From Sulfurimonas sp. C5 (GTDB lineage Bacteria > Campylobacterota > Campylobacteria > Campylobacterales > Sulfurimonadaceae), in contig NZ_JARXNQ010000002.1 in NCBI RefSeq assembly GCF_029872055.1, positions 62,001-126,000 of the forward strand: DNA of 64,000 nt, read 5' to 3'. Every line of letters starts with the position of its first letter. Position 1 is the stretch's first letter. A program made the translations under genes and the position numbers. The notes under the pieces were generated by a model. The model searched no databases. It worked only from the letters and a program-made list of their open reading frames with translations, and had not been told where the DNA came from. Below, piece after piece: positions 17,707-25,117 of this stretch.

Positions 17707-18045
17707 ATGCTTATAGAAATATTTACAGATTACATCCGCAATAAAAAAGATCTTCGTGAGTATGTTGAGGTAAGAAAAACTATCAACGAACGTGGAGAAT
17801 TTAATGACGCATCATTGATTAAGGTGCAAGAAAATCTTGAACGTTTAAAAAAGGAAAATCCTGAAATTTATGCAAAAATGTATGAAGTTTTAGAGGAAGT
17901 TTTTAGAAGAGATCAGGGGAATAATATTGAATATTCACTTGACTTTGCCAGAGAAATTTTAAAAATGTTTCAAAAGCAGTCTCTTGAAAGTATTTATGAA
18001 GAGTATGCAGCAGTACTTGAACATAAGTATCAAACGGTGAATTAG
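17707..18045 (+). CDS. Conserved hypothetical helical protein
   Basis: 112 residues from ATG 17707, which has a strong ribosome binding site (TAAGGAG). A further upstream in-frame start at 17656 has none. The protein is largely helical and charged (FTDYIRNKKDLREYVEVRKT), with no membrane segment or signal peptide. I do not recognise the family. It converges with the diguanylate cyclase gene, the two overlapping by 4 nt at their stops. It is separated from the mutarotase gene by 63 nt carrying a possible -10 (TATACT). Confidence 0.6.
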   Translation: MLIEIFTDYIRNKKDLREYVEVRKTINERGEFNDASLIKVQENLERLKKENPEIYAKMYEVLEEVFRRDQGNNIEYSLDFAREILKMFQKQSLESIYEEYAAVLEHKYQTVN

Positions 18046-19301
18046 TTTATTATAACTGTATTTCTTCCAGAGGATTTGGCATTATATAATGCCATATCAG
18101 CCAACTTAAAAGTTTGTTGCCAAGCATTGGATGGATTATGAAAAGCTGCTCCAAAACTACATGTTACTTTGTCTACAACGGCAAATTTATGTAGTTCTAT
18201 CATTTGTCTTAAATGTTCTAAAACTTTTTTTAGCATTGATTTATCATCTATATTTAACAACAATATAAATTCTTCTCCACCCCATCGTATCAAGATATCT
18301 TCTTGTCTTGAAAAATGACTTATGACTTTTACTATATCTTTTAAAATAATGTCTCCAATATCATGTCCGTAAGTGTCATTTATATCTTTAAAATGATCTA
18401 TATCAATCATTGTAAAGACCAAACTCTTATTTTTAAATATCAGTTTTTGAATATTTTGTTCAAAATATTCTCTATTATATGCCTGTGTTAGTTTATCGTG
18501 TATTGTTTTATCTTCAAGAGCTAGTTGCTCTATCATTGTATCGCTGATATCGGTAAAGTTGATTATGTATCTATTATAAACTTTTTCAACAGCGACATTA
18601 AAGGAACGAGTTATGCCATCTTGTAGTGATTGAATCATGACAATGTGCTCATTTTTTGGAAGTTCAAGTAAGGATTCTATCCAGTTTTGATCTTCTTTGA
18701 TTTTTTCAGCATGAAAATAATGCTCTTTAACTATGAAGGTATGACAAATGCAGTTATAACGTTCTTGAAATTCATCTAATGTCGTACATTGAAAATATTC
18801 TAATACTACTTTATTCATAAAAAGTACTTGCTTTTCGTTTAGAAGAAGCACCATATTTGGCTGTTGATCCAAAATACTTTCTATGAGGTTTTTTTGTGTT
18901 TCAAGTTCTATTTGTGTTTTTTTTAACTTATCAATATTTTTAAGTACAGCAATATAAAACGCTATTTGGTTGTCCTCTCTGCGTATTGCTGTTACGGTTA
19001 AATCTACCCAAACTAACTTACCAAATTTATTAATATATCTTTTTTCAATGCAAAACGAATCAATAGTACCGTTTTGTATCTCTTGTATATGTTTAAGGCT
19101 ATTATCTAAGTCATCTGAATATGTGATGTCTTGAAATGTTTTATGCTCTAGTTCCTCTTGTTTATACCCTAGCAGACTGCATAACTGTTGATTAACTATG
19201 ATAAACTGACCAGAGCTGTCAACTATTGCCATTCCCAGATTTATATTGTTGAAAATAACTTTATAGACAACATTATTAATTATTTCTTTATTAGGCGTCA
19301 T
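18042..19301 (-). CDS. PAS-PAS-GGDEF diguanylate cyclase
   Basis: 419 residues, cytoplasmic. A PAS domain (about 12-125, AIVDSSGQFIIVNQQLCSLLGY) and a second PAS-like region (about 135-250) precede a GGDEF domain (about 258-419). The active site is GGEEF (341-345), with the metal-binding FTMIDIDHFKDINDTYGHD segment and an intact inhibitory I-site RQED (332-335) five residues before it. It should make c-di-GMP under feedback control. The ribosome binding site is AGAAGAGA. It lies 17 nt downstream of the CetA-like chemoreceptor gene on the same strand, so it may be in the same operon. Confidence 0.88.
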   Translation of the reverse strand: MTPNKEIINNVVYKVIFNNINLGMAIVDSSGQFIIVNQQLCSLLGYKQEELEHKTFQDITYSDDLDNSLKHIQEIQNGTIDSFCIEKRYINKFGKLVWVDLTVTAIRREDNQIAFYIAVLKNIDKLKKTQIELETQKNLIESILDQQPNMVLLLNEKQVLFMNKVVLEYFQCTTLDEFQERYNCICHTFIVKEHYFHAEKIKEDQNWIESLLELPKNEHIVMIQSLQDGITRSFNVAVEKVYNRYIINFTDISDTMIEQLALEDKTIHDKLTQAYNREYFEQNIQKLIFKNKSLVFTMIDIDHFKDINDTYGHDIGDIILKDIVKVISHFSRQEDILIRWGGEEFILLLNIDDKSMLKKVLEHLRQMIELHKFAVVDKVTCSFGAAFHNPSNAWQQTFKLADMALYNAKSSGRNTVIIN

Positions 19302-19318
19302 TATCTCTTCTGCTTTTG

Positions 19319-20434
19319 TTATTTTGTCAGCTTTTCAAGAGTTTCTATAATTTCATCCATTTGATTGCTGACAGTACTTACTTCATTAGAAATAGCATTT
19401 ACTTTGTCTGCATTTTTATTCAATGTATCTGAACTTTCAGAGATAGACTGTATCAATACATTTGTTGTAGCAGTAGTTTCTGCTAAACTTTTTTGTGTGC
19501 GCTCTGCCAGTTTTCTTACTTCATCGGCAACGACGGCAAAACCACGTCCGTGTTCACCCGCACGAGCTGCTTCTATAGCAGCGTTGAGTGCAAGTAAGTT
19601 CGTCTGATCAGCAATATCACCTATGGTTTCTAAAATCACTTTAGTTTCGTTGGCATTTTCCACAAGAGACTGAAGGCTGCTTACCATCTCATTCTCTTTT
19701 TCTGAAACATTGTGAATTTGAACTACAATATCATGTATCATATTTTTAAAGTCCACTATGGTTGTATTTGTAATATTTTCAATAGTGTTGTTTAAATTGT
19801 TCGCCGACTCTACAATTTGTTGGTTAGACTCTTCATTTCGCTGGCGCATAGTACTGAGAGCTTCTCCCAACGAATTTACATTGTTTAAGAGCTCTGCCAT
19901 TTTTGCCTCAACAGTTACTTCACTACGGGCTTCAAAATTTCCTTGTGAGAATTGCTTTAATGTATTTATGGCATTGTCAAGATTATTCTCTGAAGCATCT
20001 AGCATGTTATTCATACTATTTCTCAATACATGTACATAAGGTGTGTTCGTATCTGCATCGATACGGCATGAATAATGACCTTTTGCCACTTTGTCTGCTA
20101 ATAAAACCATCTCACCGGCAACTCTTGTATCTTCAAGAACTGCTTTTTGATAGCTTGTTACAATCTTATTAAAATTTTGTTCTGCCACATCTGTTGTAGT
20201 TTCATCAATATCAACTTGATTTCTTTTAAATTCCATTACGTCTATAAACTCTAATCTTCTCTTATCTAGCTTAGAGTTAGAAACAGAAGTGCCTTTTCCA
20301 TATAAAACAATAACCAACATAAAAGTCATGACTGTTAAAATTGCTTGAATTATATTCGATTCAAGTACAAATAAAGATGCTAACGTTAGCATAAACATTA
20401 CAGTGATTAGTATAATTTTTTGCATATTTTTCAT
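19319..20434 (-). CDS. Methyl-accepting transducer, CetA-like energy-taxis protein
   Basis: 371 residues. Two closely spaced hydrophobic helices (about 6-46) form a membrane hairpin with no periplasmic sensor. A HAMP-like region and a signalling helical hairpin follow, with the conserved tip [20 protein letters not shown]. The preceding gene, 9 nt upstream, encodes a lone Aer-type PAS protein. This split arrangement is that of Campylobacter jejuni CetA (transducer) and CetB (FAD-binding PAS), which mediate energy taxis. The order here is PAS then transducer. The name rests on architecture and position, since the tip is identical in most chemoreceptors. Confidence 0.75.
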
Positions 20435-20443
20435 TTTATATCC

Positions 20444-20827
20444 TTAACGTAATGTTTTATAAAGCGCTTCGGCAGCTTCTATTTCTTCTTTTGCAGGTTT
20501 TCTTCTGCAAGACATATAGCGAACTTGTTTTGTTTCAGGATCTTTCATTGGATACACAGTCGCAAAAACCCAGTAATACCCACCGTCTTTAGTTTTGTTC
20601 TTAACGTAACCCGTCCATACTTTACCTTGTTTTACAGTGCCCCACAAATCTTTAAACGCAGCCTTGGGCATATCCGGATGTCTAACTATATTATGGTTTT
20701 TACCTACCAGTTCTTCGATCGAATACCCTGCAATCTTACAAAAATCATCATTGGCGAACAGGATGATTCCCTTTTCATCTGTTTGTGAAACTAAAAAGTC
20801 ATCACTTTTTAAAATATATTCACCCAA
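20444..20827 (-). CDS. Aer-type PAS protein, CetB-like
   Basis: 127 residues, one PAS domain only. Its sequence is of the Aer redox-sensor type: TDEKGIILFANDDFCKIAGY, then KNHNIVRHPDMPKAAFKDLW, then GGYYWVFATVYP. In Aer this fold binds FAD and reports respiratory redox state. As a separate polypeptide it fits CetB of Campylobacter. The start is TTG at 20827, set by AAGGAG 5 nt upstream. It is the first gene of the PAS / chemoreceptor / diguanylate cyclase cluster and is divergent from the LOV regulator. Confidence 0.78.
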   Translation of the reverse strand: MGEYILKSDDFLVSQTDEKGIILFANDDFCKIAGYSIEELVGKNHNIVRHPDMPKAAFKDLWGTVKQGKVWTGYVKNKTKDGGYYWVFATVYPMKDPETKQVRYMSCRRKPAKEEIEAAEALYKTLR

Positions 20828-21074: not shown

Positions 21075-21095
21075 TGGACACTTTATGGACACTTT
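21075..21095. promoter_or_regulatory. Two direct repeats with 11-bp period, candidate operator
   Basis: TGGACACTTT occurs at 21075-21084 and again at 21086-21095, one helical turn apart. The second copy ends 4 nt before the -10 hexamer. This is the spacing used by OmpR-type winged-helix regulators that overlap the -35 region. The gene it serves encodes such a regulator. Confidence 0.55.
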
Positions 21096-21099
21096 GTGA

Positions 21100-21105
21100 T
21101 AGAAT
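21100..21105 (+). promoter_or_regulatory. -10 element of the LOV regulator gene
   Basis: TAGAAT lies 6 nt before the ATG at 21112. Transcription would start at or near the ATG, so the mRNA is probably leaderless. The direct repeat takes the place of the -35 box. Confidence 0.45.
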
Positions 21106-21111
21106 AGTGAT

Positions 21112-21831
21112 ATGAAAGAAAAAAACTATATAAAGCTCAGTCCAAACTGTTATTGGAATCCTCATGAAGAGGTTGTGTATGTTGACGGCATTTTAACTCC
21201 TTTATCTGCCAATAAGACAAGCTGCTTAAAACTGCTGATCTACTATAGGGGTAAACCACTTAAAGATATTGAAATATTTGATTTCGTTTTCAAAGGTGAG
21301 TCAAAAGAGTTTAATAATAAAACTGTTAGAACTCTAATGAGTAATTTGAGAACTAAACTTCCTTGTCTTAATATCATAAATCACTACGGAGGTTTTTATT
21401 CTCTTGAGAAATATAGAGAGCCAACACCGGATTTTCAAGAGTATCTTCTAGATTTTATGGACCAAGCAAAGAACGGTATTGTTATTACCGACCCCAACCA
21501 AAAAGACAATCCTATTATTTATGTAAATGAAGCATTTACAAAGATGTTCGGTTACGCTTCGGAAGAAGTACTTGGAAAAAACTGTAGATTTCTACAAGGT
21601 GAAGACACTGAACAGTTTGCAAGATCGGAGATAAGAGAAGCTATTAAAAATGAAAAAGAAGTATTGGCAGTTATACGAAACTATCATAAAGGTGGTCGAC
21701 TTATTTATAATGAGGTACAAATCTCACCTATTTTTGACAAACATACTTTACAGCTAAAGTACTTTTTAGGTATTCAAAAAGACGTCACGGATCTTTATAC
21801 ACTGATGTTACAGTTAAAAGAAAAAAAATAA
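21112..21831 (+). CDS. Winged-helix transcription regulator with LOV photosensor domain
   Basis: 239 residues. The N-terminal half (about 5-100) has the OmpR/PhoB winged-helix pattern (LTPLSANKTSCLKLLIYYRG, NKTVRTLMSNLRTKL, YGGFYSLE). The C-terminal half is a LOV domain with photoactive Cys158 in GKNCRFLQ (155-162). R159 and Q162, the flavin-contact Asn190 and Asn200, and Gln222 (GIQKDV) also match the spacing of plant and algal LOV domains. Blue light should form a flavin-cysteinyl adduct and alter DNA binding. It has no receiver domain, so the LOV domain replaces phosphorylation. It is divergent from the CetB/CetA-like genes. Confidence 0.85.
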   Translation: MKEKNYIKLSPNCYWNPHEEVVYVDGILTPLSANKTSCLKLLIYYRGKPLKDIEIFDFVFKGESKEFNNKTVRTLMSNLRTKLPCLNIINHYGGFYSLEKYREPTPDFQEYLLDFMDQAKNGIVITDPNQKDNPIIYVNEAFTKMFGYASEEVLGKNCRFLQGEDTEQFARSEIREAIKNEKEVLAVIRNYHKGGRLIYNEVQISPIFDKHTLQLKYFLGIQKDVTDLYTLMLQLKEKK

Positions 21832-21861: not shown

Positions 21862-21946
21862 TGGTGCGGACGAAAGGACTTGAACCTTCACACCTTGCGG
21901 CACCAGATCCTAAGTCTGGCGTGTCTACCAATTTCACCACGTCCGC
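21862..21946 (-). tRNA. tRNA-Leu (anticodon UAG)
   Basis: 85-nt class II tRNA with CCA encoded. The acceptor stem CGTCCGC/GCGGACG pairs fully, and the anticodon loop CTTAGGA gives UAG. It is the last gene of a five-tRNA minus-strand cluster. Confidence 0.93.
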
Positions 21947-21988
21947 GTGGAATATGTGTTTAATGTCTCTTCAGACAACTCTAATAAG

Positions 21989-22065
<77 letters not shown>

Positions 22066-22075
22066 ATACATTTTG

Positions 22076-22152
22076 TGGTGCGCCTGATAGGATTCGAACC
22101 TATAACCGTCGGATCCGAAGTCCGATACTCTATCCAGTTGAGCCACAGACGC
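22076..22152 (-). tRNA. tRNA-Arg (anticodon UCG)
   Basis: 77 nt with encoded CCA. The anticodon loop CTTCGGA gives UCG, and the acceptor stem GCGTCTG/CAGGCGC has one G-U pair. Confidence 0.93.
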
Positions 22153-22202
22153 AGGCAACAACCAGTGTTTGGCTTATAAGTTACAATATATTATTAATCA
22201 AA

Positions 22203-22280
22203 TGGGGTGGAATATGGGATTCGAACCCACGGCCCCCAGTGCCACAAACTAGTGCTCTAACCAACTGAGCTAATCCCACC
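22203..22280 (-). tRNA. tRNA-His (anticodon GUG)
   Basis: 78 nt including the extra 5' G(-1), which faces C73, the His identity element. Encoded CCA and anticodon loop TTGTGGC are present. Confidence 0.93.
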
Positions 22281-22301
22281 ATGTATAATAATAAAAAAGG
22301 A

Positions 22302-22379
22302 TGGTCGGGGTGAAAGGACTCGAACCTTCGGCCCCTTGGTCCCAAACCAAGTACTCTAACCATACTGAGCTACACCCCG
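22302..22379 (-). tRNA. tRNA-Pro (anticodon UGG)
   Basis: 78 nt with encoded CCA. The acceptor begins CGGGGTG, typical of tRNA-Pro, and the anticodon loop TTTGGGA gives UGG. It is the first gene of the cluster, about 40 nt after a consensus promoter. Confidence 0.93.
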
Positions 22380-22498: not shown

Positions 22499-22524
22499 AC
22501 ATGAAATTCAAAAGGAATTTCGGG

Positions 22525-23862
22525 ATGAAAATAGCAAGATTTAGTCGAATAGGGTTTATTTTAGCAGCTGCAGGGAGTGCTGTAGGACTTGGAAATATAT
22601 GGAAGTTTCCATATATAACAGGTGAATACGGCGGAGGTGCATTTGTTTTAGTTTACCTACTTACAGTTTTGCTAGTTGGTTTTTCAATTATGATTGCAGA
22701 GATGCTGATCGGGTATCTAGGAAGAAAAGATACGGTTTCATCTTTTGAAGAACTGGCTCCGACATATAAAGATTTATGGAAGTTTGGCGGTTTTCAGGCA
22801 ATGGCCGGATTATTAATAATGATATTTTATTCTGTAGTGATAGGTTGGATCTTTAACTATATAATAACATCATTAGAGTATCTTCCTGCCAATGTGAAAG
22901 AAGCAGAAACAACATTTAACCTTATGTTGCAAAGTGATTTCTTTACTCAACTGTTTTATCATACTCTTTCCTTTGTAATTATTACCTATACTTTAACTAA
23001 AGGAATTAAAGCGGGTATTGAGAAAATAAACCTTGTACTAATGCCTGCGCTTATGATCATTTTATCTGGCATGTTTATTTATTCTCTTTCATTGGATGCT
23101 TTTCCAAAAGCTGTAGAGTTTATGTTTGCTGCAGATTGGTCTAAACTCAATTCCGAAGCGTTTGTAATTGCCGTTGGACATGCTTTTTTTACACTTAGTC
23201 TTGGTATGGGTGCCATTATGACTTATGCTGCCTCTATGGAAAAAGGCTCAAACATTGTAAAATCTGCTTTTTGGGTTGTATTTTTAGATACATCCATAGC
23301 AATCGTTGCAGGATTAATGCTTTTTACATTTCTCTATCAATATGGTTCCGGACCTGCAAAAGGGCCAGGGTTGGTATTCATATCTCTTCCTGCAGCTTTT
23401 TACGAAATGGGAATATTAGGAAATATCTTTGCAGTATTGTTTTTCCTAGCTCTTGCTTTTGCAGGACTGACATCTGCAGTATCACTTACTGAACCGATGG
23501 TACAGTACTTTATGGATAGATTTGCTTTTTCAAGGGTAAAAGCATCTGTTTTAATGGGACTGTTTTTCTGGTTCTTTGGTATTTTCGCAATTCTTTCCAA
23601 TATAGATGGTACAAAAGAGTATTTATTTTGGGGTGGTAAAAGTTTCTTTGACTGGATAGATTATATTACCGCAGCAATAATGCTTCCTGCAGGAGGCTTT
23701 ATTATGGCAATTTTTGTAGGTTATGTACTTGAAAAAAGCCGTGTAGAAGCTGCACTAAAACCATTTTTAAAATGGGCATTTGAACCGTGGTATTTCTTTT
23801 TACGTTATATTATTCCGATCGCGATGTTTGTCGTAATGTTAAATTTAATGGGTGTATTGTAA
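22525..23862 (+). CDS. Sodium-dependent transporter, NSS/SNF family
   Basis: 445 residues from ATG 22525, with about 11 transmembrane helices. The N-terminus has the family signature RIGFILAAAGSAVGLGNIWKF, whose unwound helix 1 binds substrate and Na+. Bacterial NSS proteins of this kind (LeuT, MhsT, TnaT) import amino acids with Na+. The start is chosen because a -10 element abuts the more upstream ATG. Its stop overlaps the next start (TAATG), making a three-gene unit with two small proteins. Substrate unknown. Confidence 0.9.
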   Translation: MKIARFSRIGFILAAAGSAVGLGNIWKFPYITGEYGGGAFVLVYLLTVLLVGFSIMIAEMLIGYLGRKDTVSSFEELAPTYKDLWKFGGFQAMAGLLIMIFYSVVIGWIFNYIITSLEYLPANVKEAETTFNLMLQSDFFTQLFYHTLSFVIITYTLTKGIKAGIEKINLVLMPALMIILSGMFIYSLSLDAFPKAVEFMFAADWSKLNSEAFVIAVGHAFFTLSLGMGAIMTYAASMEKGSNIVKSAFWVVFLDTSIAIVAGLMLFTFLYQYGSGPAKGPGLVFISLPAAFYEMGILGNIFAVLFFLALAFAGLTSAVSLTEPMVQYFMDRFAFSRVKASVLMGLFFWFFGIFAILSNIDGTKEYLFWGGKSFFDWIDYITAAIMLPAGGFIMAIFVGYVLEKSRVEAALKPFLKWAFEPWYFFLRYIIPIAMFVVMLNLMGVL

Positions 23863-24134
23863 TGGATATAACAAAAGAGTGTAAAGATATTTTAAAACAA
23901 GAGGGAATTAACTCTCTCTCAACTGTAGACTTTGATGTAAACGGTGAAGAAGTTTCACTTACGTTAGAGTATATTATAGATACATATATGCTGGCGTCTG
24001 AAGAATCACAGCTTGTATTTTTAACGGCTATGAAAAAATCTTTAGAAGCCAATGCAATAGGACTAGAGAAGTTTTTTGAAGGGATGGGGCAGCTTCTTCT
24101 AATGTCCCATCTCTCGGAGAAATTTGAAGGATAG
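23862..24134 (+). CDS. Small conserved protein co-translated with the Na+ symporter
   Basis: 90 residues, starting at an ATG that overlaps the symporter stop. The sequence is acidic and helical (DITKECKDILKQEGINSLS, then LEYIIDTYMLASEESQLVFL) with no membrane segment. I do not recognise a family. The tight coupling to the transporter and to the following Cys-rich protein suggests a shared transcript. A regulatory or unrelated housekeeping role cannot be separated. Confidence 0.65.
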   Translation: MDITKECKDILKQEGINSLSTVDFDVNGEEVSLTLEYIIDTYMLASEESQLVFLTAMKKSLEANAIGLEKFFEGMGQLLLMSHLSEKFEG

Positions 24135-24137
24135 ATT

Positions 24138-24341
24138 ATGGGCTGGACATGTCAGCATGACCACAAAGGTTTTTGTAAACTGTTAAATGTAGTTTGTACG
24201 CCTGGAATTAAAGGGTGTATTTTAAATAAAGGGAAAAACGAGTATTTTTTCTCTAGCGGTAATTTTGAAGAGGATAAAAAAAGAGAAGAGTCCAAAAAAG
24301 AGGACTCTATAGATTTTGCAGCACTTGCTCGTTCAAATTAG
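24138..24341 (+). CDS. Small cysteine-rich conserved protein
   Basis: 67 residues beginning [16 protein letters not shown]. Four cysteines and two histidines in the first 30 residues (CQHDHKGFC, then [10 protein letters not shown]) look like a metal or Fe-S binding knuckle. The C-terminal half is charged and probably disordered ([13 protein letters not shown]). It starts 3 nt after the previous stop and converges with thiG, with a 4-nt overlap. The family is not known to me; metal binding is inferred from residue spacing only. Confidence 0.6.
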
Positions 24342-25117
24342 AACTGAATAAGTCCGTCAACTGGACTAGAAGCAGTTGCATAAGGTTTTTTCGGAATTCT
24401 TCCCGCTAAATAACTCATACGACCACCGATAACAGCATGTTTCATAGCTTGAGCCATTGCAATCGGATCTTTTGCTTGAGCGATCGCAGTATTTGTTAGT
24501 ACTGCTTCAGCACCAAGTTCCATTGCATATGCCGCATCACTTGCACAACCAATACCTGCATCAACGATTACCGGTACATTTACAGCTTCACGAACAAATA
24601 CAACATTGTAAGGGTTTTGTACACCAAGACCGCTACCGATTGGCGCTGCTAGTGGCATAATAGCATCAGCACCTGCATCTTCAAGACGTTTAGCCATGAT
24701 CGGATCATCTGAAGTGTAAGCCATAATAGTAAAACCTTCTTTGTGTAACACTTCACATGCTTTAATAGTTTCTAGTACATCAGGGTAAAGAGTTTTTTGT
24801 GTATCACCGATAACTTCTAATTTAATTAGATCGATTCCTGTCGCTTCACGAGTAAGTCTAAAAGTTGTGATTGCCTCTTCAGCTGTTACACATCCCGCAG
24901 AGTTTGGCAAAAATTTTACATTTGTCCCTGCAAAAGTATCACGTAAGTTCTCTTTATTTGGATCAGTGATGTTTAAACGACGAACAGCAACAGTAATAAG
25001 TTCACTCCCTGATGCTAAAGTTGCCTCTTTTGTCATCTCAAAAGAATCGTATTTTCCACTTCCAACAATGAGACGAGAGTTTAATTCATATTTTCCGATT
25101 TTAAGTTTATTATCCAT
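24338..25117 (-). CDS. thiG: Thiazole synthase ThiG
   Basis: 259 residues, standard length. The N-terminal (beta/alpha)8 barrel start [20 protein letters not shown], the VRRLNITDP loop, and the phosphate-binding ends [20 protein letters not shown] and [14 protein letters not shown] are all conserved. ThiG joins 1-deoxyxylulose-5-phosphate, dehydroglycine and ThiS thiocarboxylate into the thiazole of thiamine. No thiS, thiH or thiF lies next to it here, so the rest of the pathway must be elsewhere. No TPP riboswitch signature is visible upstream; a long inverted repeat is there instead. Confidence 0.94.

What the first reader, a model, noticed from the sequence alone, without database searches (positions are those of the whole stretch)
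21075..21112. 11-bp-period direct repeat in the LOV regulator's own promoter
TGGACACTTT is repeated exactly one helical turn apart (21075 and 21086). The second copy stops 4 nt before a TAGAAT -10, where a -35 box would be. OmpR-type winged helices bind such direct repeats as head-to-tail dimers. This makes a testable autoregulation site and a query motif for the regulon. The GC-containing repeat stands out in a very AT-rich stretch.
Basis: partly seen in the sequence, partly recalled or inferred. Interest (0 to 1): 0.62.

Follow-up and report, generated by a model that had tools for sequence, protein, structure and literature searches.

The report
Self-control site of light-sensing regulator
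A short doubled DNA sequence in front of a blue-light-sensor gene of a sulfur-oxidising bacterium is kept in nearly all related genes examined, moves with the gene's promoter, and is most probably where the sensor protein binds to control its own production.

Summary
The repeat is real: TGGACACTTT at 21075-21084 and 21086-21095, 4 nt before TAGAAT. Alone it is mildly unusual (0.13 expected per window by shuffling). Conservation decides.

Of 31 wHTH-LOV orthologues in Campylobacterales, 29 carry an 11-bp direct repeat (about GAYACTT-N4-GAYACTT) beside the -10 of their transcription unit, one lacks it, one could not be seen. In 19 of 20 genes outside the GGDEF-EAL operon it precedes an apparently leaderless gene. 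In the operon group it precedes the first operon gene instead (10 of 10 visible; 8 with a degraded first half-site).

A DNA-motif search also hit response regulators with the same type of winged helix. The five closest REC-wHTH relatives carry the site; the more distant ones listed do not.

Most likely: an autoregulatory operator bound head-to-tail by the OmpR-type winged helix. Its centre near -26 favours repression (inferred). No second promoter copy was found in the own genome, so the proposed regulon query returns only its own site. Binding, direction and light effect are untested.

The parts
   Evidence: conserved columns
   Evidence: conserved columns
21084..21087 (+). 4-bp spacer TATG between the half-sites, little conserved in sequence but constant in length
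   Evidence: spacer columns 41% identical among 9 representatives
21097..21105 (+). TGATAGAAT, extended -10 element (TGn + TAGAAT)
   Evidence: gnTAnaAT is the reported sigma70 -10 of C. jejuni (PMC3847290, passages)
21112..21831 (+). wHTH-LOV regulator gene, 239 aa, ATG start 6 nt after the -10 (probably leaderless)
   Evidence: no ribosome-binding site between -10 and ATG
21112..21423 (+). OmpR-type winged-helix domain, residues 1-104
21316..21357 (+). putative recognition helix, residues 69-82
   Evidence: secondary structure of the model; conserved columns
21373..21405 (+). wing hairpin, residues 88-98 (N-Y-G-G-Y pattern)
21445..21789 (+). LOV domain, residues 112-226
21583..21585 (+). codon of the LOV cysteine (Cys158, GKNCRFLQ)

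Best explanation
The repeat is an autoregulatory operator. Two subunits of the LOV regulator bind GACACTT-N4-GACACTT head to tail through their N-terminal OmpR-type winged helices, on one face of the DNA, at a site centred near -26 of a promoter whose start is at the ATG of a leaderless mRNA. Bound there they most probably keep RNA polymerase off (negative autoregulation), and the state of the LOV domain alters occupancy. In relatives where the gene ends an operon with c-di-GMP enzymes and sometimes a CheB-CheR protein, the same operator sits at the operon promoter, so the regulator would set expression of its whole operon. Shown: repeat, spacing, conservation, promoter position, and that the site goes with this winged-helix clade across two sensor types. 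Inferred: binding, head-to-tail dimer, repression, light dependence, operon structure, leaderless start.
For: 29 of 31 orthologues carry it at the head of their transcription unit. Among 9 divergent representatives (chosen among those with a site) half-site columns are 89% identical, spacer 41%, 40-nt flank 32%. In the operon group the lowest-mismatch match of each whole locus lay at the operon head in 10 of 10. A motif search of 398 genomes hit response regulators with a related winged helix. The five REC-wHTH proteins closest to a LOV-only profile score 10.1-24 upstream; the next listed reach at most 9.7. LOV and these five group together, 96/92. In G000 the LOV protein is the only match to the wHTH profile at E <= 1e-12 (12 of 29 candidates scored). 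Direct repeats of 7 bp with a 4-bp spacer are bound by tandem dimers of PhoP (PMC4832192, passages); an operator between -10 and -35 gave repression with EL222 (PMC9614035, passages).
Against: No binding or expression data. One orthologue (G489) has no repeat. In 8 of 10 operon heads the first half-site is degraded. Four of the five REC genes were first met through the motif, and three of them were rows of A2; only L255 came from the protein side, with the weakest site (10.1, shuffle p 0.005). The T runs agree with the generic periodic signal. Three orthologues lack the LOV cysteine yet two of them keep the site, so light dependence need not be general. Repression rather than activation rests on position alone.
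Confidence: 0.6

Rival explanations
1. Same operator and same protein, but the protein activates: it stands in for the missing -35 contact like a PhoB-type class II activator.
For: The site covers the -35 region, there is no -35 consensus, and many OmpR/PhoB-type proteins are activators (general knowledge).
Against: The site ends 5 nt before the -10 and is centred near -26, closer to the -10 than I recall for pho boxes (recalled, not looked up). Promoters of this group do without a -35 anyway.
Confidence: 0.25
2. The conserved site is mainly read by another OmpR-type response regulator, which controls the LOV gene.
For: REC-wHTH proteins of the sister group carry the same operator in front of their own genes, so this specificity is not unique to the LOV protein.
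Against: In G000, G280, G031 and G217 the only match to the wHTH profile at E <= 1e-12 is the LOV protein itself (scored candidates only). The five REC relatives were met in genomes for which one search lists no LOV orthologue.
Confidence: 0.09
3. The repeat is only the generic periodic T-rich promoter signal of the group, kept by promoter function and not by a regulator.
For: C. jejuni sigma70 promoters show a periodic signal at -7, -17, -27 and -38 (PMC3847290, passages); the T runs of the repeat are in phase with it.
Against: GAYAC is kept too. Among 258 control upstream regions without this domain and outside motif-selected loci, only five LOV-operon heads and one gene next to a LOV gene exceed 10.4.
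Confidence: 0.05
4. Chance tandem match.
For: 0.13 such repeats expected per window.
Against: Conservation in 29 of 31 orthologues, with sequence outside the site at chance-like identity.
Confidence: 0.01

Closest known systems
PhoP of Mycobacterium tuberculosis and other OmpR/PhoB-family direct-repeat operators
   Same: Two 7-bp motifs with a strict 4-bp spacer read by an OmpR-type winged helix; a third motif in a row is bound too (PMC4832192, passages), as the three half-sites of G031 and G280 suggest.
   Different: Another sequence (GAYACTT), no receiver domain, no phosphorylation; the sensor is a C-terminal LOV domain in the same chain.
EL222 (LOV-HTH of Erythrobacter litoralis)
   Same: Single-chain blue-light regulator with LOV and a DNA-binding domain (PMC9614035 and PMC4844311, passages).
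   Different: EL222 has LOV first and a C-terminal HTH (of LuxR type, as recalled); here an OmpR-type winged helix comes first and LOV last.
REC-wHTH response regulators of Sulfurospirillaceae (L217, L220, L221, L222, L255)
   Same: Sister winged helix and the same operator in front of their own genes.
   Different: Receiver domain instead of LOV; the site lies about 59-89 nt before the ATG, so these genes are not leaderless.

Membership tests
OmpR/PhoB-type winged-helix DNA-binding domain | Pfam Trans_reg_C above its curated cut-off | tested here: not met
   22.8 bits against 26.2 for the window protein; 19 of 25 family members match at E <= 0.001.
OmpR/PhoB-type winged-helix DNA-binding domain | profile similarity to solved OmpR-family domains | tested here: met
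   Profile of A2 (LOV and four REC rows) matches 25 distinct PDB sequences at E <= 0.01, best CssR 7cx5 at 2.4e-8.
OmpR/PhoB-type winged-helix DNA-binding domain | four N-terminal strands, three helices, C-terminal hairpin | tested here: met
   Secondary structure of the AlphaFold model. The fold search listing of 50 showed LOV-containing entries only, so the wHTH fold was not matched there.
OmpR/PhoB-type winged-helix DNA-binding domain | binds a direct repeat of about 10-11 bp period as a tandem dimer | not testable with these tools
   The repeat is present; binding needs experiment.
LOV photoreceptor | GxNCRFLQ with the adduct-forming cysteine | tested here: met
   GKNCRFLQ in the window protein; Cys absent in 3 of 25 aligned members (L068, L069, L031).
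LOV photoreceptor | closest solved structures are LOV domains | tested here: met
   Best match 7a6p, PpSB2-LOV, E 4.0e-13, 35% identity.
LOV photoreceptor | flavin binding and photocycle | not testable with these tools
   Needs the purified protein.
PhoB-like class II activator promoter | box takes the place of the -35 at the distance from the -10 seen in pho promoters | tested here: inconclusive
   Same 7-4-7 layout, but 5 nt from the second 7-mer to the -10 here; the pho distance is recalled, not looked up.
Autoregulated transcription factor | operator at the promoter of its own transcription unit across orthologues | tested here: met
   29 of 31 (1 absent, 1 unseen).
Autoregulated transcription factor | the protein changes transcription from that promoter | not testable with these tools
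   Needs a reporter or RNA measurement.

The most novel reading that the evidence does not exclude
A portable operator-plus-winged-helix cassette that has been joined to different sensors (LOV in one branch, receiver domain in the sister branch) while each protein kept control of its own transcription unit. In stand-alone lineages the photoreceptor may have almost no other direct target, so that its main DNA output is its own level; in operon lineages the same circuit would put c-di-GMP and chemotaxis-adaptation enzymes under light control.
Probability: 0.4. Interest if true: 0.75.

Novelty: new variant of a known kind. Interest (0 to 1): 0.62.

Why it matters
It gives a defined natural operator, with a consensus, for a little-studied class of single-chain blue-light regulators (OmpR-type winged helix plus LOV) in chemolithotrophic Campylobacterota. 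Light control of gene expression in these non-phototrophs, and in some lineages of c-di-GMP and chemotaxis genes, becomes directly testable. It also shows an operator that stayed with its DNA-binding domain while sensor domain and operon layout changed. The compact pair of promoter and regulator could serve as an optogenetic part.

Tried and rejected
Rejected: (1) Chance: conservation in 29 of 31 orthologues. (2) A dispersed repeat or mobile-element end: one copy in the genome at up to 3 mismatches. (3) A regulon marked by this repeat in the own genome: CACACTTTGAAGATACTTT, shared by G000, G031 and G280, lies inside a coding frame, and so do the other 7 matches; with the -10 only the site itself remains. 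Single half-sites or degraded sites were not searched for. (4) Of the 20 stretches fetched around motif hits, L223, L224 and L227 lie inside long open frames, L226 and L229 showed no downstream frame in the script, and L219, L225, L228 and L230-L234 precede genes of other kinds; L225 and L230 precede related histidine-kinase genes beside a REC-wHTH gene. None of these was followed further. (5) RacR (PMC4456614, passages) and DccR (PMC9449129, passages) gave no comparable operator in the passages seen.

Led nowhere: the single-protein scan of genome contigs found no relative; the alignment scan worked. Nostoc matches L138, L140, L141 and L153 are LOV in larger proteins without this winged helix. 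Paper searches for LOV in this group: searches found 0 papers; searches listed none on a Campylobacterota LOV regulator among the rows shown. Most subscription papers are not held, so a report may exist. PMC3656092 was not read, because the look-up failed.

Limits: the weight matrix was built from LOV sites, so high scores at LOV genes are by construction; the REC and control comparisons do not share that circularity, except that four of the five REC genes were first met by motif. Outputs were cut by the tools, so statements on hits concern listed rows. The 54 REC loci include two genes twice (L261/L276, L264/L277) and at least four fragments (L256, L257, L260, L263); 6 of 54 had shuffle p <= 0.01, namely L251-L255 and L276, whose match lies 229 nt before the chosen ATG and may be inside the gene. 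'Stand-alone' means not in the GGDEF-EAL operon: in G079 a same-strand frame ends 50 nt upstream and in L108 a 110-aa frame 13 nt upstream.

Full report
Observation. The window shows TGGACACTTT at 21075-21084 and 21086-21095, four bases, TAGAAT at 21100-21105, and the ATG of a 239-aa frame at 21112. No other exact repeat of 10 nt or more with offset 11 exists in the window; 200 shuffles give 0.13 on average, 0.02 for units with at least 4 G/C. The motif occurs once in the window and once in the own genome, at up to 3 mismatches.

The protein. Residues 1-104 look like an OmpR-type winged helix in the AlphaFold model (mean pLDDT 83, pTM 0.50; the five models range from 63.5 to 83.0). Pfam Trans_reg_C is below its cut-off for this protein, but a profile of the family matches 25 solved sequences at E <= 0.01, most of them named response regulators of the OmpR family. 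Residues 112-226 are a LOV domain with GKNCRFLQ and LOV proteins as closest solved structures.

Orthologues. Full-length relatives occur in 16 of 398 genomes of the order (4 further genomes matched in the LOV part only) and in 19 of 135 of the genus, the own genome counted in both. The union is 25 proteins. An alignment scan of named genomes kept 80 loci; 24 are full-length, 18 of these are the same contigs by length, and six are new Sulfuricurvum proteins, so 31 in all. Record titles name Sulfurimonas, Sulfuricurvum, Sulfurospirillum/Sulfurospirillaceae, Arcobacter and 'Helicobacteraceae bacterium'; that the window itself is Sulfurimonas is inferred from the 'same genus' label of such records.

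Conservation at the gene's own promoter. In 19 of 20 genes outside the GGDEF-EAL operon the direct repeat lies beside the -10, which ends 6-8 nt before the ATG, so these mRNAs are probably leaderless. G031 and G280 have a third half-site; G490 has a degraded second half-site and a poor -10. The exception is G489: no repeat, and a short frame ends close upstream. Among 9 divergent representatives, chosen from those with a site, half-site columns are 89% identical, the spacer 41%, the 40-nt upstream flank 32%.

Operon heads. In 11 orthologues the gene comes last after a GGDEF-EAL gene, in four of them with a CheB-CheR gene first (Pfam checked for one of each, L126 and L127; the rest by likeness). 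No repeat is seen directly upstream of the LOV gene there, but in 10 of the 10 that can be seen the best match of the whole locus lies beside a -10-like hexamer upstream of the first operon gene. Two (G307, G430) have both half-sites intact; eight have a degraded first half-site. G452 starts inside the operon and could not be judged. A site that shifts with the transcription unit is what autoregulation predicts.

The site goes with the winged helix. A search of 398 genomes with the DNA motif plus -10 listed five exact matches: four LOV promoters (G419, G378, G016, G217) and one gene in G398. The listed one-mismatch rows were two more LOV promoters (G414, G332), G410 (the same gene as in G398) and G308. 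At up to 3 mismatches 107 of 398 genomes match, so weak matches are not informative, and the list was cut. The genes behind G308, G106, G373, G361 and G408 are response regulators whose winged helix resembles that of the LOV protein. Ranked by a profile of LOV proteins only, the five closest REC-wHTH proteins (86-97 bits) score 10.1-24 in their 120-nt upstream region; the next ones listed reach at most 9.7. Four of the five were first met through the motif; L255 came from the protein side only with the weakest site (10.1; shuffle p 0.005). A tree of 59 domains puts LOV and these five on one side of a branch (96/92) and 25 other REC proteins on the other, with few columns and some long branches. 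Of 258 upstream regions of genes without this domain, outside motif-selected loci, those above 10.4 are five LOV-operon heads and one gene just downstream of a LOV gene.

Targets. In the own genome the core motif (up to 2 mismatches) has 9 matches against 5 for the reversed control; the eight besides the site are inside open frames. With the -10 only the site remains. Over 17 genomes the core gave 156 matches against 84 for the reversed control; much of that excess may be composition, and it was not resolved. Elsewhere two neighbours of LOV genes carry a second site: a chemoreceptor gene in G079 (L103:1593-1622) and a PAS-PAS gene in G430 (before L121:6835).

Mechanism. If the start is at the ATG, the half-sites occupy about -35 to -29 and -24 to -18. 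Known OmpR/PhoB-family sites are direct repeats; PhoP needs 7-bp motifs with a 4-bp spacer, binds as a tandem dimer, and three motifs in a row bind more tightly (PMC4832192, passages). An operator between -10 and -35 gave repression with EL222 (PMC9614035, passages). I therefore favour negative autoregulation over activation. Whether light favours binding or release cannot be told.

Generic signal. C. jejuni sigma70 promoters lack a -35 and show a periodic signal at -7, -17, -27 and -38; leaderless mRNAs occur (PMC3847290, passages). The T runs of the repeat fall in this pattern, so the GAYAC parts carry the specific evidence.

Novelty. Direct-repeat operators of OmpR-type proteins and LOV-HTH regulators are known kinds; a 2014 survey counted only eight bacterial LOV proteins with an HTH (PMC4844311, passages). 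This combination, its operator, and the operator shared with REC relatives were not met in the searches, in a library that lacks most subscription papers. I rate it a new variant of a known kind.

Noticed in passing
L068/L105 (G490), L069/L106 (G489), L031/L128 (G307): LOV genes: The LOV cysteine is replaced: NPRYLQ in two, NIRLLN in one. G490 and G307 keep the operator, G489 has lost it.
   Followed up: partly
operon-group LOV proteins and L027 (G079): The Gln of the last LOV strand (FLGIQKD in the window) is Tyr or His (FLGIYKD, FLGIHKD, SVHKD) in the operon group and in G079; this Gln is recalled as part of LOV signalling.
   Followed up: no
L215:1344-1373 and L216 (G398, G410): A perfect or one-mismatch operator plus -10 stands 5 nt before the ATG of a 193-aa protein without a Pfam match (L215), again leaderless in layout, in Arcobacteraceae genomes for which one search lists no LOV orthologue.
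   Followed up: partly
L225 (G285) and L230 (G404): Operator-like repeats about 26-27 nt before related genes for a large sensor histidine kinase, each beside a REC-wHTH gene.
   Followed up: no
L103:1593-1622 (G079); before L121:6835 (G430): Second operator-like sites next to LOV genes, in front of a chemoreceptor gene and of a PAS-PAS gene.
   Followed up: partly
G388:C15:104224-104848: At least ten copies of a motif-like, promoter-like 30-mer spaced about 66 bp (16 forward matches in this genome), a tandem array in a genome without a listed LOV orthologue.
   Followed up: no
window 18042-20827: Divergent neighbours: GGDEF, chemoreceptor-like MCP and a PAS gene; MCP and PAS keep this place beside the LOV gene in G031 and G280 at 80-87% identity. 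No half-site pair was found at their promoter.
   Followed up: partly
window 22501-25117; L123, L126: The transporter gene at 22501 and the gene at 24338 (resembling thiG) have close relatives near the LOV operon of G436 and G301 (77-90% identity), which suggests an old common location.
   Followed up: no
window 21862-22379: Five tRNA genes (Leu, Arg, Arg, His, Pro) on the minus strand directly after the LOV gene, convergent with it.
   Followed up: yes
L076:1973-3803 (G004): The GGDEF-EAL gene upstream of the LOV gene reads as several shorter frames, perhaps a frameshift or an assembly error.
   Followed up: no
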